In this document: one piece after another, positions 1 through 64,000 of the stretch
Layout: every line of letters begins with the position of its first letter
Numbering within the stretch: position 1 is the stretch's first letter
Source of the DNA: Pseudopyrenochaeta lycopersici
Lineage: Eukaryota > Ascomycota > Dothideomycetes > Pleosporales > Pseudopyrenochaetaceae
Direction of reading: 5' to 3'
DNA length: 64,000 nucleotides
Assembly: GCA_003313425.1 (NCBI GenBank)
Contig: NHZP01000101.1
Coordinates: forward strand, 18,610-82,609
Made by a program: the position numbers and the translations under genes
The notes under the pieces: generated by a model
Database searches by the model: none
What the model was told of the DNA's origin: nothing
What the model saw: only the letters and a program-made list of their open reading frames with translations

Positions 1-527
1 AAGTCGCTTTGGTGGAGAGCTTTTTACGTGCCAAGGTGGACCTTGCAGAGTATAACGTGGTGCGAAATTTAGAAGGCCTGTCTGCTCCCTCTGTTATGGG
101 AAGCCTCATGTATGGAGCGGATACACTGAGATGTTATCCCTCTGTATTCACGGGGGAGTACCCGCCGTTGAGTGTCGGCGATGGTTGCGGGCCAGTGAAT
201 GCTGCCTCTATGGATATTGTGGAAACCCCGGGACTGTCCGGTTTTGGATCCGGTGGTGGTGGATGCGCTTATGTCGACCCTGCTTGGCTGGAGCCCCCGG
301 AAGGGTTTTGTTGTTATGCTAGTAGTTTTGTACTTCCTGGCCACTCTGACAGTGTGGCTTCTGATTACGATTCCGCTGATTGGATGTCATTAGCACCAGA
401 ACCCTTTAACAGCGATGAAGGAGAGGGTGGTCTTGGTCTTGTAGAGATGGAGGACTGGGAGCTGGGGGCTCTTACGGATGTGTTGTATGATCGTAGTGGG
501 GATCTGTTGTTAGGGGAGTATTCGTAG
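1..527 (+). CDS. Segment A protein, partial (3' exon only)
   Basis: This is the downstream part of the second exon of the segment A gene, cut by the window edge; the reading frame enters from base 1 and stops at 525-527. Bases 1-527 match 33147-33673 and 39456-39982, where the whole gene is visible. The C-terminal part is acidic and aromatic (EDWELGALTDVLYD), like many transcriptional activation tails, but that is only a resemblance. I do not recognise the family. No start codon belongs to this copy; an in-frame TTG at 9 is not a start. Confidence 0.7.
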   Translation, partial: VALVESFLRAKVDLAEYNVVRNLEGLSAPSVMGSLMYGADTLRCYPSVFTGEYPPLSVGDGCGPVNAASMDIVETPGLSGFGSGGGGCAYVDPAWLEPPEGFCCYASSFVLPGHSDSVASDYDSADWMSLAPEPFNSDEGEGGLGLVEMEDWELGALTDVLYDRSGDLLLGEYS

Positions 528-816
528 GTATGGAATTATTGTAGGGTATGTCTATTTTATGGTTGACTTATTGTGCAGTTGGTCTACCATTGTGTACGAT
601 CTGTTTTGATGGACTGGATTATGTAGAATACCTATGTTGTATTCGCAAGATTTTTCATTTTGGGTGTGAGCGCCCTTGGGATGGAACACCATCTCCAAAG
701 AAAAAAAAAATGCATAAGTCCATTTTTGCTGTGGCTGGGGGGGCACGCCGAGTCAGGTTGGCTGTGGCTCGGGAGAGTCAGCTGTGGCGCGGATTCTGCG
801 CGCACAGACCAGAAAT

Positions 817-859
817 CAACTTTCGAGTGCTATATATGATTCCTTTCACTAGAAAGTTG
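817..859 (+). other. Origin hairpin 1 (segment A to family P junction)
   Basis: Arms CAACTTTCGAGTG and CACTAGAAAGTTG (one mismatch) enclose TATATATGATTCC at 831. Short-loop type without the GGC...GCC sub-hairpin. The gene-free stretch 528-1210 holds this origin, 3' hairpins of segment A on its left, the folded leader on its right and a TATA box. Confidence 0.85.
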
Positions 860-1138
860 TCAAGTGGTCAGGAGCCTTGCGCTCCTTACCCTTGTCACTT
901 TACACGTAAGCGGAGCCCATGACTGGAGGGAGTAACGAAGTGTTAAACCACTTGGGGTTTAGGGCCTCTGCACTTAGTAAGCAAGCCGAAGCACGGACGT
1001 AGCGCGAGATCATCTGATCTGTGGGTTGCCACATTTGTTAAATCTAAGATTTGATTGGTCTATGGATATAGATTCATGGAAGGGGCACAACACTGCCTGC
1101 TATGTAGTAGTTTCTCTTGGCGGTGCCATAGATAGAGG

Positions 1139-1145
1139 TATATAA
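1139..1145 (+). promoter_or_regulatory. TATA box of the family P gene at 1211
   Basis: TATATAA, 66 bases before the start codon, followed by the ACAGAGGATCTGT hairpin seen at the presumed transcript start of many modules. Confidence 0.7.
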
Positions 1146-1210
1146 TAACAACAGAGGATCTGTGTTCATGGATATGTTTTACAATATGTAGTTTTTTTAC
1201 TACACATGCG

Positions 1211-2002
1211 ATGGAGTCGCGCTCTGGACAGGGCACTATGGCGGGAGCCAGTGCTACCATAAGCTTCTTATCTATTGTGCGTCAGTTACAGGAAGGGAGT
1301 TCCTGTTCATTGTCTGTAGAGACAGCTGTGGAACTGCAACGCGTGAGAGATCACGTGCACAGTCAGTGTTTTTCTTTTCCCCTAGACACACGATAGGTTG
1401 GCCGATGCCCAACTAACGTCATCACAGTGCTGGTGGAGCAGCATGTCTCTCTCATGGCGTATGTTGATGCGTCGGGAAGACAAGCTTGGTCGATTACCAA
1501 GGAGAGCGGACGCCTTCCCCGTCAATGTACCGAACAACAACGCATGGAGTGTTTTGAGGATTACCAGGAACTCAGTGCCTCGGGGGGTACCCAGCAGGCG
1601 CTTCTTGTCCTCAAGGTGGATACGAGTTGGAATGGCGTGGTGCGGAGCCGTGTTATATTTGCGAAGCTCTCCCTAGAGACACTGGATGTTGTCGTACAGC
1701 GGGTACTGCCTAGAATTAGATTGCCTGGTGGGCAAGTTGTAGATGCTGTAAGCATGGAGGGACTAATGCAGTTTTTAAGCATTGGGTACTATAGTACGCG
1801 GGTGGATTGCGCGTGTACTTTGTACAGAATCTGTCAGCCTTGTGTGTGTGCGCACCGGATTTCATCGAGGTTTCTTCGTTTGAATGGGTTTTCTGGGGTA
1901 AGGCCATTCGGGAAGTGTTACTGGTTTACTGGGATCAGTGACGCTGTGGGAGCAGTACTACCGTCTGGCAGGAACTGGTTGAGTTGCACTCGTTCTTGGT
2001 AA
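1211..2002 (+). CDS. Family P protein, two exons
   Basis: Predicted 241-residue protein from exons 1211-1361 and 1428-2002; the 66-base intron starts GTCAGT and ends CTAACGTCATCACAG. Exon 1 gives the short leader typical of the family (MES start, VRDHVH end). Exon 2 carries GRQAWSITKESG, a CxC-x5-CxxC cluster (DCACT then CQPC) that may bind zinc, and WFTGISDAVG near the C-terminus. Function unknown. The start is the ATG inside GCGATGGAGTCGC, as in its paralogues. Its 3' end and untranslated region closely match those of the gene at 34388, which suggests exchange between segments. Confidence 0.82.
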
Positions 2003-2375
2003 GAATATCGTGATGGTAAGATTACCTAGTCCCTGTGTCCATGTAATGGTAATAATATATCTCAGTAGGAGATGGGTGCCTAGCATATTTATGGAGATAA
2101 TTTGTTTGGGTATATTTGGTAATTGTAAGTAACGATTGTGTATCGAATTTTTTTATTTTTTGTTAAAATAAAGTCATTGTATACTGTATGAATCTGTGCT
2201 AACTACAGTAGTATGAGTAGTAAAGAATTTGTATGGCGGAGGTCAGTCAGTAAGGGTGGGAGCCCTCAGGATGGAACACCATCTCTCAAAAATTGGCTAT
2301 GTCCAATTTTGTTGTGGCTGGAGGGCACGTTGGGTCAGCTGGGTGTGGCGCGGATTTCGCGCACAGACCCTCCCT

Positions 2376-2429
2376 CAACTTTCTAGTGTGGCGTTTTGCC
2401 TATATATGATTCCTTTCACTAGAAAGTTG
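2376..2429 (+). other. Origin hairpin 2
   Basis: Perfect CAACTTTCTAGTG/CACTAGAAAGTTG stem; the loop has the GGCGTTTTGCC sub-hairpin and TATATATGATTCC at 2401. The gene-free stretch 2003-2915 includes an AATAAA signal at 2167-2172 and the folded leader. Confidence 0.88.
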
Positions 2430-2847
2430 TCAAGTGGTCACCAGCCTTGCGCTGGTTACCCTGGACACTTTACCTGTAAGCTTTGCCAACGAGTGGAACG
2501 AGAAGCGGACGCGTTAGGCTTTTTAAAGACTACGGCATAAGCACTAGCTAAGCAAGCCGAAGCACGGACGTCGCGGGTCATCTGACCTCAGGTTGCACGT
2601 GAGGAGCACCCCTGCCCTCACACGGACCAGATGTTCATAGTTATGGACACAACGGAGTGGGCGCATTATGGAATAATAGTCTTGGTATAGAGACTGTAGT
2701 GGATGCTCTGCGGTAGTTGTCCCGGAGGGTATCAGTTGGGTACTGCCGCAGTCCCTTTGGTAGGCCTCTTGGAGTGGCCGTTCCTACCGTACGCTAAGCT
2801 TAGGTGCGGGCGTCGCTTGAGCATGGAGTGCTGTTGGCAGGACTGCC

Positions 2848-2854
2848 TATAAAT
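2848..2854 (+). promoter_or_regulatory. TATA box of the short family P gene
   Basis: TATAAAT overlaps the upstream ATG at 2853, so that ATG is probably outside the transcript and the ATG at 2916 is preferred. Confidence 0.6.
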
Positions 2855-2915
2855 GGAGCATGCCACGGCGTTGCTTTGGGTAGCGGAGCTTTTATCGTGC
2901 TCTGTTGTTATCAAC

Positions 2916-3315
2916 ATGATGTTGTCTGATGTGCGTGAGGCTCGCACTATTGCCGATCAGGCGATCAGTATGTGTAATCTCTCCGTGTATTGCGGAGTGT
3001 GTGGAACTGTTTGCAGGGTGGTTACTAATGTTGCGGCGTGTAGGCGTCGCTTCACTGTTGTATATGCCCATGTCGGGCGAGTGGGAGGTCACTTGGATTA
3101 CCGACGATAAGCAAAGTTGCTGGGAAGCGTGTTTAGTACATGTGTACACGCGAGACGGGGAGGATCAATGGGAGATTATTGCGAGAGAAGATGGTGACAG
3201 CCGCGTCACCGCTGCCATGTCTCTCTTGGTGTCACTAGAGGTAGCGCTTGGTAGAGCTCCACGGGCTACGTTGGTTACAAAGCAAACGAGTGTACCGTTT
3301 ACGTTACGTAGTTGA
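2916..3315 (+). CDS. Short divergent family P protein, two exons
   Basis: Exons 2916-2967 and 3044-3315 give about 107 residues. The intron begins GTATGT and ends ACTAATGTTGCGGCGTGTAG, in the family's phase 1 position. Exon 2 aligns with the start of family P exon 2, with EWEVTWITDD where others have WWxTKESG, followed by a hydrophobic helix-like stretch (AAMSLLVSLEVALG). The CxC/CxxC cluster and WFxG motif are absent, so this is a half-length member, either truncated or specialised. An upstream in-frame ATG at 2853 would add 21 residues but lies in the TATA box. Function unknown. Confidence 0.6.
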
Positions 3316-3730
3316 TTGTTCCGTATGGATGTGCGGAGTAGACATAGGGCTGATAACGTATGGAGTGGTTTGTCCCTGTGCGCAAGGTGTGGAGCGTGTT
3401 GCGAGTATCGTGATGGCCTATCTCGATAAGGGCTTATGAAGACATGTTTTGTAGTCACGTAAGTGTGTCTTTATCTATTGTTAGTGTGTACACTTTTTCT
3501 TATGTATGGTAGGTGCATATTTGGGGACTAGGTTTATGGAGTATTGTAGTAGAGTACTTGAATGTGTTCATGACTTATGTAGGTAGGCAATGGGCCTATA
3601 CTTCTATCATAGGGACTGTGTTTTAATGTAGTTATGTAGGTATCGGATACCTAGAACTATTGTTTAGTAGTAGTATTCTGTAAAAATACTCTTACTATGT
3701 ATATTGTTTATGTAGAATAGACTAGGATTA

Positions 3731-3748
3731 TTTTTTTTTTTTTTTTTT
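3731..3748. repeat. Poly-T run
   Basis: About 18 consecutive T in the A/T-rich 3' part of the module, before the 3' hairpins. No gene is seen between 3316 and the next origin. Confidence 0.8.
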
Positions 3749-3951
3749 AACTATAAAATATTTTCTCTATATATATGTGTAGTAACGTGTTGCGTTAGGA
3801 AAAGCAACGAAGAATTTGTATGGCGGAGGTCAGTCAGTAAGGGTGGGAGCCCTGAAGATGGAAAACCATCTCTCAGAAATTGGCTATGTCCGATTTTGTT
3901 GTGGCTGGAGGTCACGTTTTACCGGGGTGCTGAAAAATTTTTCAGCCACGT

Positions 3952-4005
3952 CAACTTTCTAGTGTGGCGTTTCGCCCTTATATGATTCCTTTCACTAGAA
4001 AGTTG
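3952..4005 (+). other. Origin hairpin 3, before Rep
   Basis: Perfect stem; the loop variant reads CCCTTATATGATTCC instead of CCTATATATGATTCC. It lies in gene-free stretch 3316-4277. To its left is the cassette GTGCTGAAAAATTTTTCAGC shared with five other modules. Confidence 0.85.
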
Positions 4006-4224
4006 TCAAGTGGTCAGGAGCCTTGTGCTCGGGACCACGACGGCTTTACATCTAAGCAGGGCCTCGAGTGGAACGAGAAGCGAAGCGTTAAACCACCTGG
4101 GGTTTAGGGCCTCTGCCCCCTGTAAGCGCTAGCCTTTTTGTCACGTGGAGGCGGGAACACATGGAGTGGGCAGTATGTCTCTTTCTACGGAGTAGTGTAT
4201 CTTGGCGGAGCTTGAGGTAGGTAG

Positions 4225-4233
4225 TATTTATAT
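4225..4233 (+). promoter_or_regulatory. TATA-like box of Rep (copy 1)
   Basis: TATTTATAT, about 45 bases before the Rep ATG. The block upstream (TAAGCGCTAGCC and the GTGGAGGCGGGAACAC region) is shared only with the family P module at 21.5 kb. Confidence 0.55.
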
Positions 4234-4277
4234 GCGCGCTCTGGCCGATATGTAGCGCGCTATCGTGGAGCGATATT

Positions 4278-5456
4278 ATGGCGGAGCCTACAGTAGAGAC
4301 GTGCGATATTTCTACGGTGGGACCGTCGTCCAGGCGGACATCTTTTGCGTCTTTGTTTTCGTGTAGTACGCAAGGAAGTGCGTCGAGCGTAGTCGATGAC
4401 CTCCCGGATGGGTGTGGGGAAAGGGAAGCTTTCGCGTTGAGGGTCAACGTTGTTCTTGTAACGTGGTCACAGAGTCGTCTGGAGGACGCGTCCGAATTTT
4501 ACAATCTTCTTCAGGAGCGGATGCCTCCTGGTACGGAGATTTACGGTTGTCAAGAGCGCCATGAGGATGGGAAGCCTCATTATCACGCAGTGTTTCGGTT
4601 CACGCGTCGGACGAATTGGGTGGATGCACACCAACATTTTCGAATTTATCTGTCTGATGGCACAGTGGATACAGAGGCTATTCGGTTCTCGGTGCCTCGC
4701 CCGTATCAGCGGGAGTCTGATTTTTTGGAAAACACACAGAATTACTGTTTTAAGTATGATGATTCGGTGTTTTTTGGGACGAGGATCGAGTCACTCAGTA
4801 GTTCTGAGTCTCGGAAGCGCAAGTTCGCTGAGGTGCTGGTGGAACCTGATTACATTAAAGCGAAACGGATGTTGATGGAACTGGATCCTATGGGATTTAT
4901 CAAGTTTTATAACGCGTACTCGTCCTATCTGGCTAACGAGAAGAAAGGCACGCCTGGACGAGGGTGGGTAGACTCTGGGGAACCCCTGAAGCAATGGCGT
5001 GTCCCGGTCGCCATGGAGGATTGGCGGAAAAGTTACATTGGGGGGTCATATAAGGGTAGACCTGTCCCCCTCATTCTTGTTGGTCCATCGAGGCTAGGAA
5101 AGACAGAATGGGCTTTGCGTGCAGGGCCCAAGCCCATGGCCATGTCCAATCAGTGGAACCTTGGTAATTATGACCAGGATGCGTCGCATCTCGTGTTAAA
5201 CGACATCGATTTCAGCAATTTTGGGTCTGGTAAGTACCGGTATTGGCGAGAAATACTTGGTGGGCAGGCTTGTATTGATGCGCACGATCGGTATACGAAA
5301 ACACGGAATTTGAGTTGGGGATTTCCAGTCATTGTAACGTGCAATGCAGATAATGACCCTCGGAAAGTTCCTGACATTGCGGCGTATCTGAAGCATGCGC
5401 CTTGTGTTGTGGTTGAGTTGGCGGATCTACTGTATGTAGATGACGATCTAGCGTAG
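4278..5456 (+). CDS. rep: Rep: rolling-circle replication initiator (HUH nickase and SF3 helicase)
   Basis: Complete 392-residue CRESS-DNA virus Rep, uninterrupted. Motif I VLVTWSQ at residues 59-65; motif II with the HUH-type HYH at 101-103; motif III with catalytic Tyr156 and Lys159 (YCFK). The superfamily-3 helicase follows: Walker A GPSRLGKT at 269-276, Walker B LVLNDID at 305-311, motif C VIVTCNAD at 351-358. It should nick the origin loop, stay bound to the 5' end and unwind the replicative form in the host nucleus. The roughly 50-residue Ser-rich extension before motif I is longer than in typical geminivirus or circovirus Reps. ATG at 4278 follows the TATA-like box directly. The copy at 40587 appears identical. 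A stop-free frame and intact motifs suggest function or very recent insertion. Confidence 0.97.
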   Translation: MAEPTVETCDISTVGPSSRRTSFASLFSCSTQGSASSVVDDLPDGCGEREAFALRVNVVLVTWSQSRLEDASEFYNLLQERMPPGTEIYGCQERHEDGKPHYHAVFRFTRRTNWVDAHQHFRIYLSDGTVDTEAIRFSVPRPYQRESDFLENTQNYCFKYDDSVFFGTRIESLSSSESRKRKFAEVLVEPDYIKAKRMLMELDPMGFIKFYNAYSSYLANEKKGTPGRGWVDSGEPLKQWRVPVAMEDWRKSYIGGSYKGRPVPLILVGPSRLGKTEWALRAGPKPMAMSNQWNLGNYDQDASHLVLNDIDFSNFGSGKYRYWREILGGQACIDAHDRYTKTRNLSWGFPVIVTCNADNDPRKVPDIAAYLKHAPCVVVELADLLYVDDDLA

Positions 5457-5525
5457 ATAGATAGAATGAAAAATGGCTATGTCCATTTTCGTGGTGGCGG
5501 TGCGGGTCGCGCACAGGCCAGAACT

Positions 5526-5578
5526 CAACTTTTCTAGTGTGGCGCAGCCTATATATGATTCCTTTCACTAGAAAGTTG
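5526..5578 (+). other. Origin hairpin 4, tail-to-tail junction
   Basis: Left arm and GGCGCAGCC sub-hairpin come from the Rep module; the right side continues as the reverse complement of another module's tail (GTTGAGGGAGGGTCTG). This is the left edge of the inverted module. TATATATGATTCC starts at 5550. Confidence 0.85.
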
Positions 5579-5972
5579 AGGGAGGGTCTGTGCGCACAAT
5601 CCGCGCCACACCCAGGTGACTCTGCATGGCCTCCAGCCACTGTGAAATCGGACTTAGCCAATTTTTTTTTGAAATGGTGTTCCATTTTAAGGGTTCACGC
5701 CCTTACTAACCAAGCTCCGCAACAACGAGAAGTCATTGTTTTAATGGCCCTACCATGACCAAATCAGCAACATTTTCTAATACCAAAAATCCTCCGCACA
5801 AAATAAACTACGCATACTTACAATACCACATGAAAACTACGTATCAAACTACTCTCGCATGCAACCATTAGCATAGAATCTAAAATACAAAGTATTTCAT
5901 CCTAACGCACCAATACTATGATCACTCCTTCCGATGTACACTCCACGTACCACAGCGACGGACTACATTGAC

Positions 5973-6776
5973 CTACTCGGGGCATGGCTCACAAGTCAAC
6001 CAGTTCCTTCCCGATGGTTGTACTACACCAACAGCGTCACTGACCCCAGTGAACCACTCAAGCTTTCCAAACGGCCATACACCCGAAAATCTATTCAGCC
6101 AAAGAAAACCTTGCCACGAATGCGATCCTAACGCACAAGGCCTACAAATTCCATCTAGCATGCAGCCGCAGCCAGCACCTTTAGGAAAAACCCCTAAAGA
6201 GAATGCATCAAACCATCCCTCGACAGCTAACGCATCTGCAGTCTGACCATCTGACAGCACAAAAAGAGGTAAAATGCGCTGCACAACCACCTCCAGTGCC
6301 TTCGAAGACAGCTGAGCAAACAGAACGTAGCTCCGCACCCCGCCATCGTGAACTCCATCCACCTTGAGGACCAAGAGTGCCTCCTGGGTCCAACCATGGC
6401 AATCCAACTTCTCATAGTCTCCCAGACAACCTAAATGGACCTCCGTCTCACACTGCCGCGGAGGCTGCCCGCTTTCTTTGGTCACCCACCAAGATTGTCT
6501 CCCCGACAATGGCACATGGACAGTTAGCGACACTCCACGCTCTACAAGCTCTATGACGCTGTCAGTTGGGCATCGGCCAACCTGCCTTCTAAGAGAGGCA
6601 GAAAGAAGACGTATTCACTGACTGTGCACGTGATCCCTCACCACTTGCCGCTCCGCCTCTGTCCCTACAGACACTGGACAGGGCCTCCCTTCCTGTAGCA
6701 CATCTACAATAGACGGGAGGCTGTTCTTGGTATCGGCCTCCACCATAATAACCTCTTGCCCAGTACGCGACTCCAT
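5973..6776 (-). CDS. Family P protein, two exons, in the inverted module
   Basis: On the minus strand, exons 6776-6623 and 6550-5973 give 243 residues. The intron starts GTCAGT and ends CTGACAGCGTCATAG. Features are canonical: MES start, VRDHVH at the exon end, GRQSWWVTKESG, CxC-x5-CxxC (CGCMLDGICRPC), WFTGVSDAVG. Function unknown. It is the only gene on the minus strand, because its whole module from origin to origin is flipped; the promoter came with it. Confidence 0.82.
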
Positions 6777-6827
6777 CGCACTATGCTTTAAAAAATTCAC
6801 TCCGTAAAAACAGCTCCACTGTTCTTG

Positions 6828-6834
6828 TTATATA
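6828..6834 (-). promoter_or_regulatory. TATA box of the inverted family P gene
   Basis: TATATAA on the minus strand, 52 bases before the ATG, followed by the ACAGTGGAGCTGT hairpin. The element CTAGGGACTAG lies further upstream. Confidence 0.7.
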
Positions 6835-7105
6835 CCTCTCTGTCTTGCGCGCCGCCAAGAGAACCTAGTCCCTAGCAGGCAATGTGGTGCCCCGTCCCTG
6901 CGTCTACGTTCATAGACCAATTAGATCAAAGATCTTGTGAGGCACAGCAACGTCAGATGACTCACGCTCCACGTGATGCCGTGCTTACCAGGGCTTTTAC
7001 CTCTAAACTACAAGTAGTTTAACCCTTCGGTATTCGTTCCACTCATAGGCAAAGCTTAGCGTAAAGTGTCAGGGGTCAAGGAGCGCAAGGCTCCTGACCA
7101 CTTGA

Positions 7106-7159
7106 CAACTTTCTAGTGAAAGGAATCATATATAGGCTTTTCGCCACACTAGAAAGTTG
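7106..7159 (-). other. Origin hairpin 5, head-to-head junction
   Basis: The hairpin is read in reverse (loop TATATATGATT on the minus strand, 7125-7134). Both flanks are module starts: CTTGACAACTT to the left and AAGTTGTCAAG to the right. It closes the inversion begun at hairpin 4. Gene-free stretch 6777-7521 holds two folded leaders in opposite orientation. Confidence 0.85.
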
Positions 7160-7440
7160 TCAAGTGGTCAGGAGCCTTGCGCTCCTTACCCTTGTCACTT
7201 TACATGTAAGCTTTGCCAACGAGTGGAACGAGTACCGAAGGGTTAAACTAGAATTAGTTTAGAGGCAATGCACTTACTAAGCATAGCAGAGCACGGGCGC
7301 GTGCTGATCATCGGATCGCTGCTTGCCCACTTTTTTTTTCAATCAGTTGTCTGATTGGTCTATGAATGTAGACATAGGGAGTGTGCGTTTCTTCGCCCAC
7401 TAGGGACTAGTATTCCTTGGCGGAGACCATGGTAGATATC

Positions 7441-7447
7441 TATATAA
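7441..7447 (+). promoter_or_regulatory. TATA box of the family P gene at 7522
   Basis: TATATAA 75 bases before the ATG, followed by ACAGAGGATCTGT. Confidence 0.7.
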
Positions 7448-7521
7448 TTACAACAGAGGATCTGTTGGCATGGAGTGGTTCTACATTCCTTAAGGAAACT
7501 TTTTCCTTGTTTTGCTTTCCG

Positions 7522-9030: not shown

Positions 9031-9037
9031 TATAAGA
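9031..9037 (+). promoter_or_regulatory. TATA box of the gene at 9260
   Basis: TATAAGA followed by a GGGGAGCCCTCTCCCCC hairpin, the second promoter style seen in the array. It lies 223 bases before the ATG, leaving a long leader. Confidence 0.6.
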
Positions 9038-56074: not shown

Positions 56075-56128
56075 CAACTTTCTAGTGTGGCGTTTTGCCT
56101 ATATATGATTCCTTTCACTAGAAAGTTG
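56075..56128 (+). other. Origin hairpin 36
   Basis: Perfect stem, motif at 56100. Gene-free stretch 55529-56633; the leader region 56360-56530 is unlike other modules and nothing is recognised in it. Confidence 0.87.
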
Positions 56129-56536: not shown

Positions 56537-56545
56537 TATATAAAT
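56537..56545 (+). promoter_or_regulatory. TATA box of the gene at 56634
   Basis: TATATAAAT, 89 bases before the ATG. Confidence 0.65.
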
Positions 56546-56633
56546 GGGGTCCCCGTAGTGTCGGGGTGCAGTGACTGCCTTTTAATGCTATTTAACCCTT
56601 CTTATTTTTTTCCTTGTTATCAGCGTGGTTGCG

Positions 56634-57266
56634 ATGCCAACTGGAAAGGAGTATTCTGCGCGGAGGCGGTGCGAAGTTCGACTTCGGTCTGCGGTAATAC
56701 GCTATACGCTTGTTCCCGGAGGGAAGATGTTAAGTGTGGAGGACTTCAGCAAAGCCTTTCATCGCTACTTGATGAACCCCACGATGAGTGGTCAACGTAG
56801 TGCCGATGCGTGGATAGCAAGGCCTGTTTTGTCTAGTCGAAGCGAGGCCGCGGATGGCGATTTATTCGACGTGTTTGATGTACTCGTCGTCTTTCCTGCG
56901 CAGATCCGGGTAGGGTCTTGTTCGCGTAGGTTTACCTTTGCGCCGCGTGTCTGGAAGGCGGCCGTTGTTGTCAAGGCAGCACAAAGTCGCAATATGTGCG
57001 TATTTGCGGTGTCGATACTTTGCCAGTGGAGCGACGCTTGTGAGGACCAGGTGTCGTTGGGATGTTTCGGCATTGGGTTTGACAGAACCGGCTTGGAGCT
57101 CGATACGGAGTCGTTTGCTGTTTGTCGTCAGTTAACGCTGTTCGGGTATGCCGAACTTTTGGATGGAACGATCTCAGACCCAGCTGCCCTTAGGCCGTAT
57201 GTTGTACGTCCGGATTTTGAGCCGATTATGGAGTATTGCGTTCCCGTTTGCCTACGGACCGGTTAG
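56634..57266 (+). CDS. Unknown 210-residue protein, possible capsid candidate
   Basis: Uninterrupted frame. The first 25 residues are basic (EYSARRRCEVRLRSAVIR), the rest alternates hydrophobic and polar residues in a way that suggests beta strands (FDVLVVFPAQIRVG, FTFAPRVWKAAVVVKA, FAVSILCQW). Length and a basic N-terminus fit small CRESS-virus capsid proteins, but there is no sequence recognition, so this is a guess. The start ATG is the first after the TATA box that opens this frame. Confidence 0.6.
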   Translation: MPTGKEYSARRRCEVRLRSAVIRYTLVPGGKMLSVEDFSKAFHRYLMNPTMSGQRSADAWIARPVLSSRSEAADGDLFDVFDVLVVFPAQIRVGSCSRRFTFAPRVWKAAVVVKAAQSRNMCVFAVSILCQWSDACEDQVSLGCFGIGFDRTGLELDTESFAVCRQLTLFGYAELLDGTISDPAALRPYVVRPDFEPIMEYCVPVCLRTG

Positions 57267-57662
57267 AAGTCTGGTCAAGAACTTTGTGTTGTGGCGATAT
57301 GGTGACCTTGTTGTTACATCACTTCAAGGTGTACGGCTTTTATGTTGGGTACACGGAGTTGTGTGGTATGGAGTATTTTATGGGGATATTGGTGTTTCCC
57401 TAACTAAGGTACGTTTTTGGCAAGTGTTTTGCGCATGTTGGCTAACATGAGGGCGTTAGCGTTTATTGATGACATTGGTCGTATGAGGCATGTGTGGCAT
57501 TGTTGGAGTATTTGTACGCTAAACGTCAGTTTTGTGTTAAAAAAAAATTGCTAAGTCCAATTCCTGTGTGGCTGGAAGACAGGCTGAGTCAGGATGCTGT
57601 GGCTCGGGAGAGTCACGTTGGGATGCTGTGGCGCTATTTTTGCGCGCACGGGCCCATTCTCT

Positions 57663-57705
57663 CAACTTTCGAGTGCTATATATGATTCCTTTCACTAGAA
57701 AGTTG
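57663..57705 (+). other. Origin hairpin 37
   Basis: Short-loop type, CGAG arm, motif at 57677. Gene-free stretch 57267-57999; no TATA box was recognised on the right. Confidence 0.86.
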
Positions 57706-57999
57706 TCAAGTGGTCGAGAGCCTTGCGCTCGGGACCACGACGGCTTTACTGTAAGCTTTGCCTGTGACTGGAGGGAACAGCGGACGCGTCAAACTACTTG
57801 TAGTTTAATGGCAAAAGCCCCGGTAAGCAACATGCAGCACGGACCGTGTGAGTCAGATGACCGCAGGGTTGCCCACTCTCTCTCAGATCTTTGGTCTGAT
57901 TTGTTAGCGGGAGCGTTGGGAGCTAGTAGCGGGTCACGGACGTGGGTTAGGTATCTACTGGTATGCTTATTGGTCGGATGACATCAAGGCGGGGCACCG

Positions 58000-58410
58000 G
58001 TGTTTTTCCGCCGTTTTTCCGCGGGGCTGGCGGAGGCTCGCGGCTTCTGTCTGTTGCGGGGTTATCGCAAAGACTTCTTTAACTCTTCCATCGCGGACGC
58101 ATTGAGCAAGAATTGCAACGAAAAGGGACGTTTTCTCATTGTACGGCGGAGCCTCGCATATCGTATTCCTTGTGCGCCGCACATATTGGACATGGACGCA
58201 CGGTGGAACCGGCCCCAAGAGGTGTTTATGCAAAGCACGAGTGGTGCGTGGAGCGTGTCTCCCGGTTGGCAGACCTGGATGCAGAGCGGAATACTTTACG
58301 ATGGTCGTTCTTCGGCGGGAGCGAACAATGGTTTGGAAGGCGCAGGCCCAGTCACAACACTGGATGAAGGTGCTGGAGAGCGGGAAGGCCGCGATATCGG
58401 TCGAGTGTAG
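58000..58410 (+). CDS. Unresolved gene in three overlapping frames
   Basis: Between 57963 and 58567 three forward frames are long and none is clearly right. The listed frame contains RFLIVRRSLAYRIP and GAWSVSPGWQTWMQSG. A second (to 58367) contains CVERVSRLADLDAERNTLRW and FFGGSEQWF, which resembles family P exon 2 openings. A third (to 58567) contains SSIALEALGVIFVSVLQ, like the family P helix. An ATG at 57963 (MLIGRMTSRRGTG) may start the first exon. I suspect a family P relative with unseen introns or frameshifts. Confidence 0.35.
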   Translation: MFFRRFSAGLAEARGFCLLRGYRKDFFNSSIADALSKNCNEKGRFLIVRRSLAYRIPCAPHILDMDARWNRPQEVFMQSTSGAWSVSPGWQTWMQSGILYDGRSSAGANNGLEGAGPVTTLDEGAGEREGRDIGRV

Positions 58411-59253
58411 CTCGATTGCGTTGGAGGCGCTTGGGGTGATTTTCGTGAGCGTCCTACAGAGTGCTTTACTCTGTTGCACTTGCCTGTCACGGATGTGCTG
58501 GGTTGGTGATCGGTCGGCCTCGGAGAGTTACTTGCGGAAGCGGACGCACTGTGGACGCAGTGGGTAGGGATGGTTGCTGCGCCGAAGGTGTGGGCTTTTT
58601 GGTAAGTATACCGCCTTGTCTATTGCGACAAGTTAAGAAGGCTTGTGTATCATGTTACTGACGTTTCTGTCTTCGTAGTTCTCTACGATATGTGGTTGTA
58701 CTGCGGGAAGCATATGTCGTGTAGCCTGTAACGTATAGAGTTATCTTTACTCTTCCCTATTTGAGGATGCAGTATGTGCGTAGTACTGTTTTTCTCATAA
58801 TGCGTAGCTATAATGTTAGGGCAGCGTCTATTACGTGAGTGTTTGTTTCTGTAAATGTTTTATTTCCCTACTGATAGGCTAGGTAGTAGCCTTGTGTTCT
58901 GTGTTTAGGGTATTTCCTACCCTACTTGCTTTTTTACAATACGTTGATGGTATCTATGTCGTAGGTTCTTTTTTTTTTTTTAGAATTGCGAGGCTATTTG
59001 TTTTGTCTCTATCATGGGTGTTTTTACTAATTTGTGTTATATAGGAACTAGGTAAGAGGTACTATGCGTTAGACGTGCGTTGCTTGTGGTGGGGCATAGT
59101 ACGTTAGGAAGTGCGGAGCTTCATTGTTAAGGGTGGGAGCCCTTGGGATGGAAGATGGAACATCAGACCTCTCGAAAAAATGGCTAAGTTCATTTTTGTT
59201 GTGGCTGGAGGTCACGTTTTACCGGGGTGCTGAAAAATTTTTCAGCCACGACT

Positions 59254-59306
59254 CAACTTTTCTAGTGTGGCGCAGCCTATATATGATTCCTTTCACTAGA
59301 AAGTTG
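59254..59306 (+). other. Origin hairpin 38
   Basis: Loop GGCGCAGCC, motif at 59278. Gene-free stretch from 58568 to 59664; mostly T-rich before 59100, with the GCTGAAAAATTTTTCAGC cassette near the origin. Confidence 0.87.
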
Positions 59307-59605
59307 TCAAGTGGTCAGGAGCCTTGCGCTTCTGATCCTAGACACTTTACACGTATGCGTTGCCTACGACTGGAGGGAGTAGCGAAGCGTTAGGCTCCTT
59401 GGAGACTAGAGGCAAGAGCCCCTGTAAGCAGAGCAGAGCACGGACGTCGCGGGTCAGATGACGCTGCTTTGCACGTGAGGAGCACCCCTGCCCTCGCTAC
59501 TCTCTCAATCAGTTGTCTGATTGGTCTATAGCTATAGACGCATGGAATGTGCATTAGGTTGCTCATTAGGGACTAGTGGTCTTGGCATGGTTCAAGAGCT
59601 GGATG

Positions 59606-59612
59606 TATAAGA
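59606..59612 (+). promoter_or_regulatory. TATA box of the family P gene at 59665
   Basis: TATAAGA followed by a run of about twelve G and a CCCTC stretch. Confidence 0.62.
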
Positions 59613-59664
59613 GGGGGGGGGGGCCCTCTGCCTCATTTACGGAGTGTGTTCCAGCTCACTCTAA

Positions 59665-60534
59665 ATGACGATGGTGTCGTCAACCGGAGGGCATATTCGT
59701 ACGGATTGTGATGGCCGTGTAGGTAGCGTACAGCTCGAGCTTGCTCTGTCGGGGATCGACTGCCTTGTAGAAGGCAAGTTAGGAGAATTTGTTACATGGA
59801 GTGCATCTGATTTAGATTGTTTGCGGAGCCACATGGACAGTAGGCTTTTCTCTCTGTCTATCTTTCAACAGTTGGGGGCTGCAACTGACGGAGTGGTAGT
59901 GTTGGTGAAGCAACGCGTGTCTCTTACGTTTCACCTACAGCCGGATGGCGCGCTGGAGGTATGCCTGACCAAGGAGAGCGGGCAGGCTCCTCGCCAGTGT
60001 TCTGCGCCCAATGTGTGTGGGTGTTATTTTGGAAGTTGTACTTCTGCCGATAATGCCCCGATGGCATTTCTTGTTTGGAAAGCAGACGTTGTAGGACAGT
60101 ACAATCAGATGCGGAGCATGGTTGCATTTGCACGTCTTTGCTCGGAAACACTGGAGGTGTTCATCGAAAGCGTATTGCCCTGTGTGTATACACATGGGAG
60201 AGATCACGTGCAGGCGGAGGAGGTCGATACGCTCTTTGACGCACTTGATCAAGGGCGATTTTCCAGTAGCGTTGGGTGCGGGTGCAAATTGCGAGAGCAT
60301 TGTTTGTCCTGTTTGTCGTTACGTTCTAATCAGCAACGTTTCACGAGATGGGACATGTTTAGTGGGCCATTCCCATGCGGTCCAGATGGCTGGTTTTCTG
60401 GGTACAGCGATGCGGTTGGAATCGTAGAACCGTTGGCGCTTGACTGGCTTACATGCCCGTATACTGCGCTCAATTCTATCTCGCCTCTCGAGGGTGCACT
60501 TAGTAAGTACTCTGTAGACGAGTTGCTCAGTTAA
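59665..60534 (+). CDS. Family P protein with an in-frame intron
   Basis: Exons 59665-59839 and 59900-60534, 269 residues; the 60-base intron (GTAGGC...CTGACGGAGTGGTAG) has no stop and is a multiple of three, so the unspliced 289-residue form is also open. Exon 2: LEVCLTKESG, CGCKLREHCLSC (CxC-x5-CxxC), QRFTRWD, WFSGYSDAVG, then a longer tail than in relatives. Closest to the gene at 20194. Two ATGs (59665, 59671) start the same frame. Function unknown. Confidence 0.8.
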   Translation: MTMVSSTGGHIRTDCDGRVGSVQLELALSGIDCLVEGKLGEFVTWSASDLDCLRSHMDSRLFSLSIFQQLGAATDGVVVLVKQRVSLTFHLQPDGALEVCLTKESGQAPRQCSAPNVCGCYFGSCTSADNAPMAFLVWKADVVGQYNQMRSMVAFARLCSETLEVFIESVLPCVYTHGRDHVQAEEVDTLFDALDQGRFSSSVGCGCKLREHCLSCLSLRSNQQRFTRWDMFSGPFPCGPDGWFSGYSDAVGIVEPLALDWLTCPYTALNSISPLEGALSKYSVDELLS

Positions 60535-60838
60535 GTATTGTTTAGTATGGACTATTATTGTCAAGCATGATAGGTGCACGATTTCTGTCGGACAGACTCT
60601 ACATGAAACAATTAATTTGTGGTAGTAGTTGGCGGTAGCTAATTTTTGTTTTCAGGTATGGATGGTGGTTATGTACTATGGTATATAGTAAGGGTGTGAA
60701 CCCTTAGGATGGAACATCAAATCTGAAGAAAAAATGCGTAAGTCCATTTTGTGTGTGGCTGACAGTCACGCAGGGTCACGTTAGCTGTGGCGCGGGGAGC
60801 GCAGACATGGGTCGTTTTTGGGCACGGGCCCATTCTCT

Positions 60839-60881
60839 CAACTTTCTTGTGCTATATATGATTCCTTTCACTAGAAAGTTG
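60839..60881 (+). other. Origin hairpin 39
   Basis: Short-loop type, CTTG arm, motif at 60853. Gene-free stretch 60535-61246. Confidence 0.86.
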
Positions 60882-61158
60882 TCAAGTGGTCAGGAGCCTT
60901 GCGCTTCTGATCCTAGACACTTTACACGTATGCGTTGCCTACGACTGGAGGGAGTAGCGAAGCGTTAGGCTCCTTGGAGACTAGAGGCAAGAGCCCCTGT
61001 AAGCAATACAAAGCACGGACAGTGCGGATCAGGTGATGTTGGATTGCCACATCTGTTAAATCTATGATTTGATTGGTCTATCTCCATAGACGCATGGAAT
61101 GGGCATACCTATGCTCACTAGGGACTAGGTGGTCTTGGCATCGCGCAGGGCAGGAATG

Positions 61159-61168
61159 TATATATAAG
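61159..61168 (+). promoter_or_regulatory. TATA box of the family P gene at 61247
   Basis: Duplicate of the element at 51683. Confidence 0.7.
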
Positions 61169-61246
61169 ACAGCTGAGGAGCTGTGTTCACGGACGTGTTG
61201 CACCATTCTAAGGAACCTCGTGCTTTCCTTTTGTTTTTACATTGCG

Positions 61247-62060
61247 ATGGCATCGCATACCGGGCAGCGCACCCTAGCGAGTAGCGTGCCATCAATAGAC
61301 AGGCTTGTTTTGGGTAGAAGGGGGGACCCGTTCACAGGGACAGCTGAGAATATTCAATGGATGCGGAGTTACGTGCCGGGTAGGTTTGTTGCTGTTTCTT
61401 TTCATTCTCACTGCAGTGGGGGGGGTCCCAACTGACGGAGTAATAGTGCTTGTAGAGTATGGTGTATCTCTTACCTTCCATGTGCCATTGTCGGGGAGAC
61501 AATCTTGGTGGGTGACCAAAGAGAGTGGGCAACCCCCTAGGCGGTGCGTAGAGGAACAGCACACGGAGTGTCTCAATAATTACCAGCAGCACGCTGTGCA
61601 GCGTAGTATGCGGCAGGCGGTTCTTGTAGTAAAGGTGGAAACCATATATTACGACGAGAGGAATACGATTGTTGTATTTGCGGAGCTCTCTCTAGAGACA
61701 TTGGATGTTCTCTTGTATCGCATCGTACCTTCTCTCATACGGCCGGATGGGCAGATTGTGGAGGCTTTCTATGTCAATAGATTGTTCGAGTTGTTGGAGA
61801 ACGGGTGGTGTAGTACGCGGGTGGACTGCGGATGTTCACGACATACTATATGTGAGCCTTGTGCGTATGTACATGGTTTTTCATCCAGGTTTGTTAAGTG
61901 GCCGAGGTTTTCTGGTGTACGGCCAGTAACTAATTCTAACTGGTTTGGTGGGATCAGTGACGCGGTAGGGGAGGTGCAACCGTATGGTTTAGATTGGTTA
62001 TCGTGTCTTATGAGTAGGTGTTACGGTGATAGTTATTACTATTACGAACACGGAGTATAG
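61247..62060 (+). CDS. Family P protein, two exons, copy 2
   Basis: Same gene as at 51771, offset 9476: exons 61247-61379 and 61447-62060, 248 residues, identical translation. The two modules differ only near the right-hand origin, where this one has GGCCATGCAGAGTCACATGG in place of the CAGC-palindrome cassette. Confidence 0.83.
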
Positions 62061-62413
62061 TAACGTAGTGGGGATAGTATAAACTAGGAATGAAGTGTAT
62101 GTTTATTGTATGTTTTTCAGGATATTATTGGGACTGCAAAGTATATTAATATATGTTGTTTGTATAGCATAGTAAGTAAGTTTTTGTTGGTAGGTATACA
62201 ATTGTTTTTTGTACCCGTAGGTACTAATTTAGTAATGGTAGGGCCATTAAAACAATGACTTCTCGTTGTTGCGGAGCTTGGTTAGTAAGGGTGGGAGCCC
62301 TCAGGATGGAACATCAAACCTCTCGAAAAATGCGTAAGTCCATTTTCGTTGTGGCTGGAGGGCCATGCAGAGTCACATGGGTGTGGCGCGGATTTCGCGC
62401 ACAGACCCGGACT

Positions 62414-62466
62414 CAACTTTTCTAGTGAGGCGCAGCCTATATATGATTCCTTTCACTAGAAAGTTG
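62414..62466 (+). other. Origin hairpin 40
   Basis: Loop GGCGCAGCC preceded by GTGA, motif at 62438, right side of the GAGCAAGTGG variety. Gene-free stretch 62061-62803. Confidence 0.86.
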
Positions 62467-62749
62467 AGCAAGTGGTCGGCAGCCTCGTGCTGCCAGCCCT
62501 TGCAACTTTACCTGTAAGCAGAGCCCATGAGTGGAACGAATACCGAAGGGTTAGACTACTTATAGGCTAGGGGCGCTGCACTTACTAAGCAGAGCAGAGC
62601 ACGGACGGTGCGGGTCACTTGACCTTGCTGTGCCCACTCTTTTTTCAATCAGGATTCTGATTGGGCTATGGACATAACCTCATGGAATGGGCAGCCCTCT
62701 GTGTACTATGGAGTAGTTTTTCTTGGCAAAGACAGCATGGTTATCGATC

Positions 62750-62755
62750 TATAAC
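62750..62755 (+). promoter_or_regulatory. TATA-like box of the family P gene at 62804
   Basis: TATAAC, weak, followed by ACAGAGGAGCTGT. Confidence 0.5.
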
Positions 62756-62803
62756 ACGAACAGAGGAGCTGTTTGCATGGATATGTTTTACACCTACATT
62801 GCG

Positions 62804-63595
62804 ATGGTATCGCAACCTGGGAAGCTTATGGAGTTGTGGGCTATAGACGATAGTCGTATGCCATCCCTTGACAAGCTTGTGTCTGGTTGCAAGGGGAATC
62901 CCTTTGCGGGGACAGCTACCAATCTGCAATGGGCGCGGAGGCACATTGGTAGTACGTTTGTACTGTTCTTTGCTACTTAGTTAGTTAGAACGCTAACTAA
63001 TAGAGTTGTAGAGCTGGTGGAGCAAGCTGTGTCAGTGACTTGCTATTCGGGTCTGGATAGCGAACCCTATTGGTGGCTTACCAGGGAGAGTGGATATCTC
63101 CCTCGCGAGTGTATATGGGATGGACCACACACGGAGTGTCTCGATGAGTTCAATGAGTTCTATGCCCAGGGGGCCACTCGGCAGTCGGTTCTTGTGCTGA
63201 AAGTTGACGTAGCCCAGGATGGGGAGGTGCGGAGCTTAGTTGCTTTTGCTCAACTCTCGGTAGAGGCATTGGATGTGCTTGTGGAGCGTATTCTACCTCT
63301 TGTAACACGATCACCTGATGGTCATACGGCGGATGCTGTAGTTGTGGAGGCACTGTTTGATACTTTGTCACTAGGTGGCTTTTCTACATCTGTGAAGTGC
63401 GCATGCAGACTACATGGAATTTGTAGGCGTTGTGCATCAGTACAGCGTATGTCGCCAAGGTTTCTTTTGTTGAATGGATTTTCTGGAGTATGGCCGTTCG
63501 GGGAATCCGTTTGGTTTGCTGGCATTAGTCATGCTGTGGGACTATTACAGCCGTATTCAGTGAACTGGATGAGTTGCGATTTATCCCTTAAGTGA
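62804..63595 (+). CDS. Family P protein, two exons
   Basis: Exons 62804-62948 and 63012-63595, 242 residues; 63-base intron GTAGTA...CTAACTAATAGAGTTGTAG. The start is the MVS variant, with ATG in TGCGATGGTATCGCA. Exon 1 ends LQWARRHI. Exon 2: PYWWLTRESG, CACRLHGICRRC (CxC-x5-CxxC), WFAGISHAVG (His replaces the usual Asp). Function unknown. Confidence 0.82.
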
Positions 63596-63991
63596 GTCAA
63601 TGTAGTTCGTTATTGAGGAACATGGACTAGTAGTTAGGAGGGCTATTACTGATGGTAATTGATTGTGGAGAAACAGGCTTTGTTTTATTTCCGAATCGGT
63701 GGTGGTATCGTGAAGCGTGTTGACACATATTCTCTGTGTATGCGGGTTTAGGTATGTAAATTCTGTAGGGAGCAGAATAGTATTCTCAAATTGTAGAAGA
63801 AAAAGCTAATGTCGTAATGGTTAGGTCTTCGAAACAAATAAGGGATTTTTGTATTGCCTTGCAATATTGTTAAGGGTGTGTGGACGCCCTGGGATGGAAC
63901 ATCAGACCTCTCGAAAAAATGGCTAAGTTCATTTTTGTTGTGGCTGGAAGTCACGTGTTGGGGGAGCTGAAAAAAATTTTCAGCCACTCCT

Positions 63992-64000
63992 CAACTTTTA
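63992..64000 (+). other. Left arm of origin hairpin 41, cut by window end
   Basis: CAACTTTTA at the last bases, at the expected 1.57 kb spacing from hairpin 40. Gene-free stretch 63596-64000 with the 3' hairpins in between. The array therefore continues past the window. Confidence 0.7.

What the first reader, a model, noticed from the sequence alone, without database searches (positions are those of the whole stretch)
1..64000. An array of about 40 single-gene, 1.57-kb ssDNA-virus-like modules with at least 30 distinct segments
Forty origin hairpins recur at 1565-1603 base spacing across the whole window. Each interval has one gene with its own promoter, including Rep, RAD52-like, PIP-box and F-box genes, and at least 18 paralogues of one unknown family. 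Nanoviruses, the best known multi-segment CRESS viruses, have 6-8 segments of about 1 kb. The length constancy despite unrelated genes suggests a packaging constraint on monomer circles. If correct, this is an extremely segmented CRESS-type virus or virus-derived element.
Basis: partly seen in the sequence, partly recalled or inferred. Interest (0 to 1): 0.97.

Follow-up and report, generated by a model that had tools for sequence, protein, structure and literature searches.

The report
Hundred-segment DNA virus on fungal telomeres
The chromosome ends of this fungus carry long trains of roughly 100 kinds of 1.58-kb, mostly one-gene units that look like the segments of a single-stranded DNA virus and are joined to the telomeres at the spot where the virus's own replication enzyme should cut.

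Summary
The window is a contig end in a 62.7-Mb Pleosporales (fungal) assembly. The origin occurs 40 times here and 893 times genome-wide. 96 complete modules (1536-1609 bp) fall into 61 kinds (Chao1 100); 35 of 50 same-kind pairs are identical. One kind encodes an intact CRESS Rep, another (outside the window) an intact capsid-like protein, others a RAD52-like protein, a Rep nuclease without helicase, and a large orphan family. At all 9 array starts fetched without selection, host DNA is followed by 1-3 telomere repeats (one tract with an extra G) and then TTCC of the origin loop; telomeres are also added at the other side of the loop, TATATATGA|TTAGGG (17 exact cases), though of 5 unselected caps only 2 are there and 3 lie inside a module. 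Best reading: an endogenised, recently amplified, hyper-segmented relative of the 3-4-segment genomovirus-like mycoviruses, whose Rep joins segments to telomeric ends. Not shown: free circles, particles, Rep activity, the capsid fold. Rivals: a Rep-encoding telomere transposon; a helper virus with many satellites.

The parts
1..839 (+). 3' part of a module of type T01 (acidic 223-aa ORF)
   Evidence: same coding sequence as 32391-33985; module begins at C101:17854
840..2409 (+). module T60, orphan family A; predicted ATG 1211, intron 1362-1427, stop 2002; origin (TTCC) at 840
2410..3985 (+). module T20, ORF 2929-3315 (128 aa), unknown
3986..5558 (+). module T22, Rep segment, first copy
4278..5456 (+). 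Rep, 392 aa: VTWSQS, HYHAV, YCFK (HUH endonuclease) and GPSRLGKT, LVLNDID, VTCN (SF3 helicase); motif names recalled
   Evidence: Pfam Gemini_AL1_M 8.7e-4, REP_ORF2-G2P 1.5e-3, both below the curated cut-off; 14 homologues; alignment
5559..7125 (-). inverted module of type T32 (family A); + origin at 5559 and - origin at 7106-7131 meet through the hairpin arms
   Evidence: GC skew falls from about +0.2 to +0.02 in this bin
7126..8732 (+). module T62, family A core 7769-8299
8733..10298 (+). module T19, no clear long ORF
10299..11899 (+). module T04, ORF 10791-11354 (187 aa), unknown
11876..11901 (+). interstitial telomere tract (TTAGGG)4.3 in the origin loop between two T04 modules: ...TATATATGA|(TTAGGG)4|TTCC...
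   Evidence: TRF, junction reading
11900..13476 (+). module T04, second copy (12392-12955)
13477..15068 (+). module T17, divergent family A
15069..16643 (+). module T49, RAD52-like segment
15503..16351 (+). RAD52-like single-strand annealing protein, 282 aa
   Evidence: Pfam PF04098 7.2e-28; human RAD52 chain 4.8e-20; 13 identical copies in the assembly, plus a two-piece 45-48% match on C12, presumably the host gene
16644..18218 (+). module T21, ORF 17147-17638 (163 aa), unknown
   Evidence: 11 identical copies of its unique part in the assembly
18219..19792 (+). module T50, divergent family A
19793..21369 (+). module T18, family A (20372-20989)
21370..22938 (+). module T51, divergent family A
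22939..24524 (+). module T52, ORF 23379-23882 (167 aa), unknown
24525..26105 (+). module T11, no clear ORF from ATG
26106..27674 (+). module T02, family A (26667-27248); also the first module next to host DNA on C4 and C101
27675..29247 (+). module T53, ORF 28054-28638 (194 aa), unknown
29248..30812 (+). module T09, family A (29779-30411)
30813..32390 (+). module T54, ORF 31477-32070 (197 aa, Ser-rich), unknown
32391..33985 (+). module T01, ORF 33002-33673 (223 aa, acidic C-terminus), unknown
33986..35553 (+). module T07, family A (34295-35170)
   Evidence: no homologue at E<=1e-3 in the protein search
35554..37121 (+). module T07, second adjacent identical copy
37122..38699 (+). module T55, family A (37705-38289)
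38700..40294 (+). module T01, second complete copy (39311-39982)
40295..41867 (+). module T22, Rep segment, second copy (Rep 40587-41765), 100% identical
41868..43458 (+). module T03, 85-aa ORF 42300-42557 with F-box-like motif (no Pfam match)
43459..45043 (+). module T00, family A (44324-44776)
45044..46628 (+). module T00, second adjacent identical copy
46629..48231 (+). module T56, divergent family A
48232..49800 (+). module T16, weak ORFs only
49801..51385 (+). module T57, ORF 50446-50964 (172 aa), unknown
51386..52960 (+). module T23, family A (52132-52584)
52961..54533 (+). module T58, family A (53479-54111)
54534..56108 (+). module T21, second copy (55037-55528)
56109..57685 (+). module T08, ORF 56634-57266 (210 aa), unknown
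57686..59286 (+). module T59, weak ORFs only
59287..60861 (+). module T05, family A (59665-60534, 289 aa)
60862..62446 (+). module T23, second copy, 99.8% identical
62447..64000 (+). last, incomplete module, cut by the end of the contig before the next origin loop
   Evidence: (contig has 82609 bases)

Best explanation
This is the chromosomal, telomere-attached form of a hyper-segmented CRESS (genomovirus-like) DNA virus of a Pleosporales fungus. Each 1.58-kb module is one segment: one hairpin origin plus, mostly, one gene. About 100 kinds are estimated (Rep, capsid-like protein, RAD52-like protein, a Rep nuclease lacking the helicase, and an orphan family in about half of the kinds seen). SHOWN by sequence: the modules, their number, near-identity and constant length; intact Rep and capsid-like frames; arrays at contig ends beside host DNA; junctions telomere/array and array/telomere at one point of the origin loop. 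INFERRED: Rep nicks the loop (TATGATT^CC, by analogy with TACTCTT^CA of BcssDV1), stays on the 5' end and transfers it to a telomeric 3' end ...GGGTT-OH; the freed 3' end ...GATT-OH primes telomerase and gets a new telomere; repeated addition and recombination between origins (by host repair or the RAD52-like protein) build mixed arrays. The array is then a heritable reservoir from which Rep could release monomer circles that are packaged, which would explain the fixed segment length.
For: 893 exact origins, 0 in the reversed control. 96 complete modules (37 from the window, 59 elsewhere): 1536-1609 bp, mean 1579, s.d. 12, 61 kinds, Chao1 100; 35 of 50 within-kind pairs exact, minimum 99.06%. 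Independent estimate: 13 copies of RAD52, 11 of Rep incl. 2 interrupted, 11 of T21, 8 of capsid-like not counting 2 end fragments, 3 of short Rep; mean 9.2, 893/9.2 = 97 kinds. Rep: 9 identical full-length copies, HUH and helicase motifs. Capsid-like protein: 353 aa, 19 K/R and 1 D/E in the first 60 residues, pI 9.5. Array starts fetched before any joint pattern was searched: 9 of 9 (C4, C5, C10, C18, C23 both ends, C50, C54, C101) have TTAGGG units before TTCC, C4 with one extra G. Joint patterns genome-wide: 40 TTAGGGTTCCTTTCACTAGAAAG and 17 ATATGATTAGGGTTAGGG, 0 in controls. Of 29 of the 40 that I read (28, 1), 20 have non-module DNA before the tract and 9 a module; 8 of these 9 modules end at TATATATGA|, which the search pattern did not require. 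Telomere added exactly at the loop at the ends of C18, C50, C77, C99, C118 and, by coordinates, C119. All 100 origins that one search lists (of 893) point to the nearer contig end. GC skew +0.20 to +0.22 in 15 of 16 bins, lost where a module is inverted, as expected of DNA that is single-stranded part of the time. Kin: BcssDV1, four one-gene circles of about 1.7 kb from purified particles, nick TT^C (PMC10731770, abstract and passages).
Against: No free circles, particles, reads, coverage or transcripts could be examined. The capsid call rests on size and a basic N-terminus: no PDB or Pfam match at E<=1, no structure predicted. Rep's Pfam hits are below the curated cut-offs. Of the 5 telomere-capped array ends fetched without selection only 2 (C18, C50) are capped at the loop; C5, C54 and C102 are capped 599, 225 and 147 nt past an origin, and C89, by coordinates, inside the capsid-like gene; so many ends are healed without Rep. 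Five other fetched array ends (C4, C10, C23 both, C61) show no telomere. One interior joint is trimmed (C65:246635). Tracts at array starts keep only 1-3 perfect repeats against 29-144 nt at assembled chromosome ends; breakage as in MoTeR arrays may explain it but is borrowed. C17 has a telomere and no exact origin. IMG/VR scans found nothing. Mixed order is not what plain rolling-circle replication gives. The TT shared by TTCC and TTAGGG leaves the exact break open over three positions.
Confidence: 0.65

Rival explanations
1. A telomere-specific transposable element: a transposon-like Rep system (a DNA analogue of the MoTeR/FoTeR retrotransposons) that spreads from telomere to telomere by nick-and-join and never leaves the cell; the ~100 kinds are cargo or non-autonomous members mobilised by one Rep in trans.
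For: The copies found are in arrays; junctions are telomeric; MoTeR arrays are head to tail with TTAGGG tracts between units (PMC7367193 passages); only about 1 module in 80 carries Rep (11 of 893); no viral contig matches.
Against: An intact capsid-like gene kept in 8 identical copies, length held to 1579 +/- 12 whatever the gene, and the one-gene-per-circle plan of BcssDV1 are not needed by a transposon.
Confidence: 0.2
2. A small helper virus (Rep, capsid-like and a few more segments) with a swarm of satellite segments that borrow its origin, Rep and capsid, many carrying copies of one orphan gene family. Not exclusive of the best explanation.
For: Family A is in 31 of 62 kinds by a strict motif; copy numbers differ (3 to 13); outside the origin the common region varies among kinds.
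Against: Copy number does not separate core genes from others: Rep 11, capsid-like 8, RAD52-like 13, T21 11.
Confidence: 0.25
3. Assembly artefact: reads from free viral circles or amplification chimaeras were strung together by the assembler.
For: Identical modules are hard to assemble; C4 and C101 look like two overlapping pieces of one end; C166 and C99 have frame-broken Rep copies near contig starts.
Against: Non-module DNA, telomere repeats and then array at 9 of 9 unselected starts and telomeres at 8 array ends; rolling-circle concatemers would be of one kind, yet neighbours are the same kind in only 3 of 74 cases; C4 and C101 agree in the modules that could be compared (T02, T03 and the fourth, T01).
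Confidence: 0.04
4. Arrays grew by break-induced or rolling-circle copying of extrachromosomal circles by eroded telomeres (ALT-like); Rep only made the circles. Not exclusive of a viral origin.
For: Tandem growth from circles is known for telomeres (recalled); the same subtelomere with the same number of TTAGGG but different first modules (C101/C120/C124, C83/C92/C174, C99/C118) suggests exchange of arrays after the first joint; 3 of 5 unselected caps are not at the loop.
Against: Homology-driven copying would not by itself put telomere joints at one point of the loop, on both sides.
Confidence: 0.22

Closest known systems
[quoted passage not shown]
   Same: Fungal host; circular segments (about 1.7 kb in BcssDV1), Rep and capsid on separate segments, common region with a stem-loop and a nick before C (TACTCTT^CA; here TATGATT^CC), a putative intron in Rep (passages of PMC10731770 and PMC8262958).
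   Different: Four and three segments against an estimated 100; no word on integration ('integrat' 0 hits in PMC10731770) or telomeres ('telomer' 0 hits in PMC8262958). The Rep relation to them was not tested here.
Nanoviruses
   Same: One gene per circle, shared origin, Rep in trans (recalled).
   Different: 6-8 segments of about 1 kb, plant hosts, no telomere arrays (recalled).
MoTeR / FoTeR telomeric retrotransposons of Magnaporthe and Fusarium
   Same: Head-to-tail arrays at telomeres with TTAGGG tracts between units (PMC7367193 passages; FoTeRs, PMC12857005, listing only).
   Different: Those are reverse-transcriptase elements; here Rep, hairpin origins, a capsid-like gene, and joints at a replication origin; most neighbours here have no TTAGGG between them.
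HHV-6 chromosomal integration
   Same: A DNA virus that integrates in telomeres and encodes a relative of AAV Rep, U94 (PMC4499131, listing).
   Different: Large dsDNA virus with its own telomeric repeats, not segmented (recalled).
Polydnavirus proviral loci
   Same: Many integrated segments, expanded gene families (recalled).
   Different: dsDNA circles of wasps, other excision enzymes and genes (recalled).

Membership tests
CRESS DNA viruses (Cressdnaviricota) | Rep with HUH endonuclease motifs I-III and SF3 helicase Walker A/B and motif C | tested here: met
   the profile of A1 matches 6 distinct solved viral Rep nuclease domains at 4e-5 to 2e-4
CRESS DNA viruses (Cressdnaviricota) | stem-loop origin with a nonanucleotide-like loop | tested here: met
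   six examples folded, stems of about 11-13 bp around TATATATGATTCC, one with TTAGGG in the loop; the loop is not the textbook nonamer
CRESS DNA viruses (Cressdnaviricota) | circular single-stranded genome, packaged | not testable with these tools
   no reads or particles
Genomoviridae | Rep phylogenetically inside the family | not tested
   no tree with reference genomoviruses was made; nearest database relatives are unnamed or labelled Pyrenophora and Colletotrichum
Genomoviridae | genomovirus-type capsid protein | tested here: inconclusive
   353-aa protein with basic N-terminus, no Pfam or PDB match
Genomoviridae | genome of 1-4 segments (as in the members read about or recalled) | tested here: not met
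   61 kinds in 96 modules, estimate about 100; not filed under a known genus
Telomeric retrotransposons (MoTeR type) | reverse transcriptase | tested here: not met
   none among the 26 module ORFs scanned against Pfam; not every kind was scanned
Telomeric retrotransposons (MoTeR type) | head-to-tail units with TTAGGG tracts at chromosome ends | tested here: met
   but only a minority of unit borders carry TTAGGG (1 of the window's 40 origins)
Geminiviridae / Nanoviridae | loop TAATATTAC or TAGTATTAC (recalled) | tested here: not met
   origin loops of the window read TATATATGATTCC, one CTTATATGATTCC, one with TTAGGG repeats

The most novel reading that the evidence does not exclude
A DNA virus with about 100 one-gene segments (about 158 kb in all) that has made the telomere its home: its Rep treats telomeric 3' ends as origin ends, so that segments are added to and capped at chromosome ends, while monomer circles are released and packaged. 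It would be the most segmented virus that I know of and, as far as I could find, the first ssDNA virus with telomere-specific, origin-precise endogenisation.
Probability: 0.45. Interest if true: 0.98.

Novelty: categorically new. Interest (0 to 1): 0.94.

Why it matters
Segment number in multipartite viruses is thought to be limited by the odds of getting every segment into one cell (recalled); an element with about 100 segments kept as a heritable chromosomal array would show one way round that limit. It also gives a testable case of a viral HUH nuclease acting on telomeres, and a likely source of chromosome-end instability in a fungus. The parts (Rep, one-gene segments, telomere arrays) are of known kinds; the system made of them was in none of the listings of the ten searches of one open-access library; subscription papers and preprints were not covered.

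Tried and rejected
Rejected: ordinary satellite DNA (units share the origin region and carry unrelated genes). Rejected: known RNA families or tRNAs (nothing). Rejected: plant-virus nonamer TAGTATTAC as the origin: its listed places are on C1 and C2, which hold no origin. Rejected: a fixed module order: one unlike neighbour pair recurs (T02-T03, the C4/C101 overlap); same-kind neighbours are 3 of 74, expected 0.8, P 0.049. Rejected: recent capture of the host RAD52 (45-48% identity).

Led nowhere: AlphaFold model of family A from 11 sequences, mean pLDDT 37, not used. Scans for relatives: IMG/VR with Rep, capsid-like protein, family A and the origin, and one scan of prokaryote genomes with Rep: none. 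dN/dS among 17 spliced family A genes: median 0.37 in 104 of 136 pairs (32 saturated pairs dropped), 0.50 in the 8 least diverged; weak support for constraint. The splice models (35 of 36 representatives with a family A core give an open spliced frame) come from a script that prefers good donor sites and are not an independent test.

Numbers to read with care: modules were cut out by the 17-nt origin with at most 1 mismatch, so the conservation of that stretch is by construction; the scan (6 mismatches allowed) is the unbiased check. Inner joints were found by a pattern that contains the joint; the unselected sets are the 9 starts and 5 telomere-capped ends. Chao1 assumes even sampling; two modules shared by the overlapping C4 and C101 are counted twice. 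29 of 40 inner joints were read.

Full report
WHERE IT IS. The window is bases 18610-82609 of contig C101 (82,609 bases) of an unnamed 62.7-Mb, 188-contig assembly. The host is a Pleosporales fungus: its RNA polymerase I subunit RPA2 is 92% identical to an unnamed database protein, 91% to Plenodomus lindquistii and 90% to Paraphoma chrysanthemicola and Plenodomus lingam; the genus is not settled. The first origin of C101 is at 13,116; the DNA before it is 99.97% identical over 6150 bp to the right end of the 2.19-Mb contig C4. C4's first, second and fourth modules (T02, T03, T01) are those of C101; its third was not classified. C101 is therefore probably the continuation of that chromosome end.

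THE MODULES. The 26-nt origin arm occurs 40 times in the window when 6 mismatches are allowed, 39 of them exact. The 20-nt core occurs 893 times in the assembly, 0 for the reversed control; at 1.58 kb each that is about 1.4 Mb, 2% of it. The 96 complete modules that I could cut out (37 in the window, 59 in fetched stretches; the two units around the inverted one were handled apart) are 1536-1609 bp, mean 1579, s.d. 12. They form 61 kinds at 85% coverage and 90% identity; 37 were seen once and 16 twice, Chao1 100. The window alone has 32 kinds in 39 units. Of 50 within-kind pairs 35 are exact, the rest down to 99.06%. Five kinds counted genome-wide have 13, 11, 11, 8 and 3 copies, mean 9.2; 893 divided by that is 97 kinds. 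Neighbour order shows no pattern in 74 adjacent pairs beyond a slight excess of same-kind neighbours.

WHAT THEY SHARE. The loop and right arm define the modules, so their conservation is by construction; the left arm varies (CAACTTTCTAGTG, CAACTTTCGAGTG, CAACTTTTCTAGTG) and six examples fold to stems of about 11-13 bp. Other shared 10-mers are ATTGGTCTAT near +212 (40 of 62 kinds), CTAGGGACTA near +258 (37 of 62) and GTGGCTGGAG near -97 (33 of 62), which I read as promoter and common-region elements. The + strand is G- and T-rich in 15 of 16 bins, not in the bin of the inverted module.

GENES. Rep (4278-5456 and 40587-41765) has the HUH and SF3 motifs and 14 database relatives; the three highest identities are 57, 55 and 53%; named ones are labelled Pyrenophora tritici-repentis (contig of 1,600 bases), P. 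seminiperda (241,788) and Colletotrichum sojae. Nine full-length copies in the assembly are identical; two more are interrupted near contig starts; three copies of another module encode a Rep-like nuclease domain without helicase, 46% identical. A module read on C18, C54 and C99 encodes an intact 353-aa protein with 19 Lys/Arg and 1 acidic residue in its first 60 residues; searched without its first Met, it has 8 identical intact copies and 2 end fragments. By size, composition and one-gene segment it looks like a CRESS capsid protein; no profile or solved structure matches. The RAD52-like protein is secure. The orphan family A is in 31 of 62 kinds by a strict motif (T61 is the same kind as T32), in 19 modules of the window; the member searched has no homologue at E<=1e-3. 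Most members read as two exons with an intron of about 50-80 nt. F-box-like motifs, one fused to family A, are resemblance only.

TELOMERES. All 100 origins listed point to the nearer contig end: + on C4, C10, C18, C23 right and C50, - on C5, C23 left, C54 and C61. Array starts fetched before any joint was searched (C4, C5, C10, C18, C23 both, C50, C54, C101) all, 9 of 9, have telomere units directly before TTCC: 1 on C5, 2 or 3 on the others, with one extra G on C4. Patterns taken from these joints occur 40 times (TTAGGGTTCCTTTCACTAGAAAG) and 17 times (ATATGATTAGGGTTAGGG) in the assembly, 0 in controls. I read 29 of the 40: 20 follow non-module DNA, 9 follow a module, and 8 of these 9 modules end ...TATATATGA, a feature not in the search pattern. 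The only tract of two or more TTAGGG in the window lies in an origin loop. Outer caps: of the 10 array ends fetched without selection, 5 have no telomere (C4, C10, C23 both, C61), 2 have it exactly at the loop (C18, C50) and 3 inside a module (C5, C54, C102). Chosen by pattern, C77, C99 and C118 are at the loop and so, by coordinates, is C119; C89's telomere starts inside the capsid-like gene by coordinates. Two of five at one point of a 1579-base unit is far above chance, but healing inside modules is as common. Because TTCC and TTAGGG share TT, the break may be after GA, GAT or GATT; GATT^CC is preferred by analogy with TACTCTT^CA of BcssDV1. Of the 15 contigs listed with a 60-nt telomere (100 of 113 places listed), 11 carry arrays, C17 has no exact origin, and C95, C110 and C139 are not known.

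DYNAMICS. The same subtelomere with the same number of TTAGGG is followed by different first modules on C101/C120/C124, C83/C92/C174 and C99/C118: alternative versions of one end in the culture, or duplicated ends whose arrays were exchanged. RIP: the small host sample (three loci singly, two pools) has (CpA+TpG)/(ApC+GpT) 0.08-0.73 and TpA/ApT 1.66-2.68; the window has 1.07 and 1.07. By the first index the arrays are not RIP-mutated; by the second, with the usual limit near 0.9 (recalled), they are not clean. The better argument for youth is that copies are identical and frames open. In Magnaporthe, tracts of three or more TTAGGG between MoTeR elements are said to break and short ones to persist (PMC7367193, passages), which could explain the short tracts here.

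MECHANISM. Rep-mediated strand transfer onto telomeric 3' ends and telomerase capping explain the joint position, the orientation and fossil telomeres inside arrays such as 11876-11901. Caps inside modules need ordinary healing of broken ends, and the shuffled order needs repeated addition of single segments or recombination between origins. Fixed length with genes from about 85 to 392 aa points to a capsid or replication-size limit. All of this is inference.

NOVELTY. The abstract and passages on BcssDV1 describe four 1.7-kb segments; the papers were not read through. None of the listings of ten library searches showed a telomere-linked CRESS element; one search listed 20 of 60 papers, 20 of 33, 8 of 9. 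I rate the system categorically new, while its parts have known relatives; in virus taxonomy alone it would be a new variant of multipartite genomovirus-like viruses.

Noticed in passing
G000:C61 (301,352 bases): Origins or marker modules were hit from 1 kb to 299 kb, so this contig may be almost wholly array (about 190 modules); it was not read through.
   Followed up: partly
L057:780-1337 (C119:20485; also C92, C131): A separate module encodes the Rep nuclease domain without the helicase, 46% identical to Rep, 3 copies; it could regulate or carry out joining.
   Followed up: partly
L054:5363-6959 (T41) and L011 (T25): Family A domain fused to an F-box-like N-terminus (T25 by eye); Pfam does not confirm for T41.
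   Followed up: partly
L004, L007 (contig C1): Host AT-rich stretches (GC 27%) with strong RIP indices.
   Followed up: partly
L015 and L024, host side: On C5 and C54 the telomere tract and array follow long retrotransposon-like open frames (by eye), as if broken ends had first been healed by telomerase.
   Followed up: no
window 5559-7131: The only inverted module; two origins face each other through the hairpin arms, suggesting recombination in the palindrome.
   Followed up: partly
G000: TAGTATTAC occurs 1813 times against 374 for the reversed control; the listed places are on C1 and C2, away from arrays. Unexplained.
   Followed up: no
window 48590-48616: (TCT)9 in module T16, a Ser or Leu run depending on frame.
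   Followed up: no
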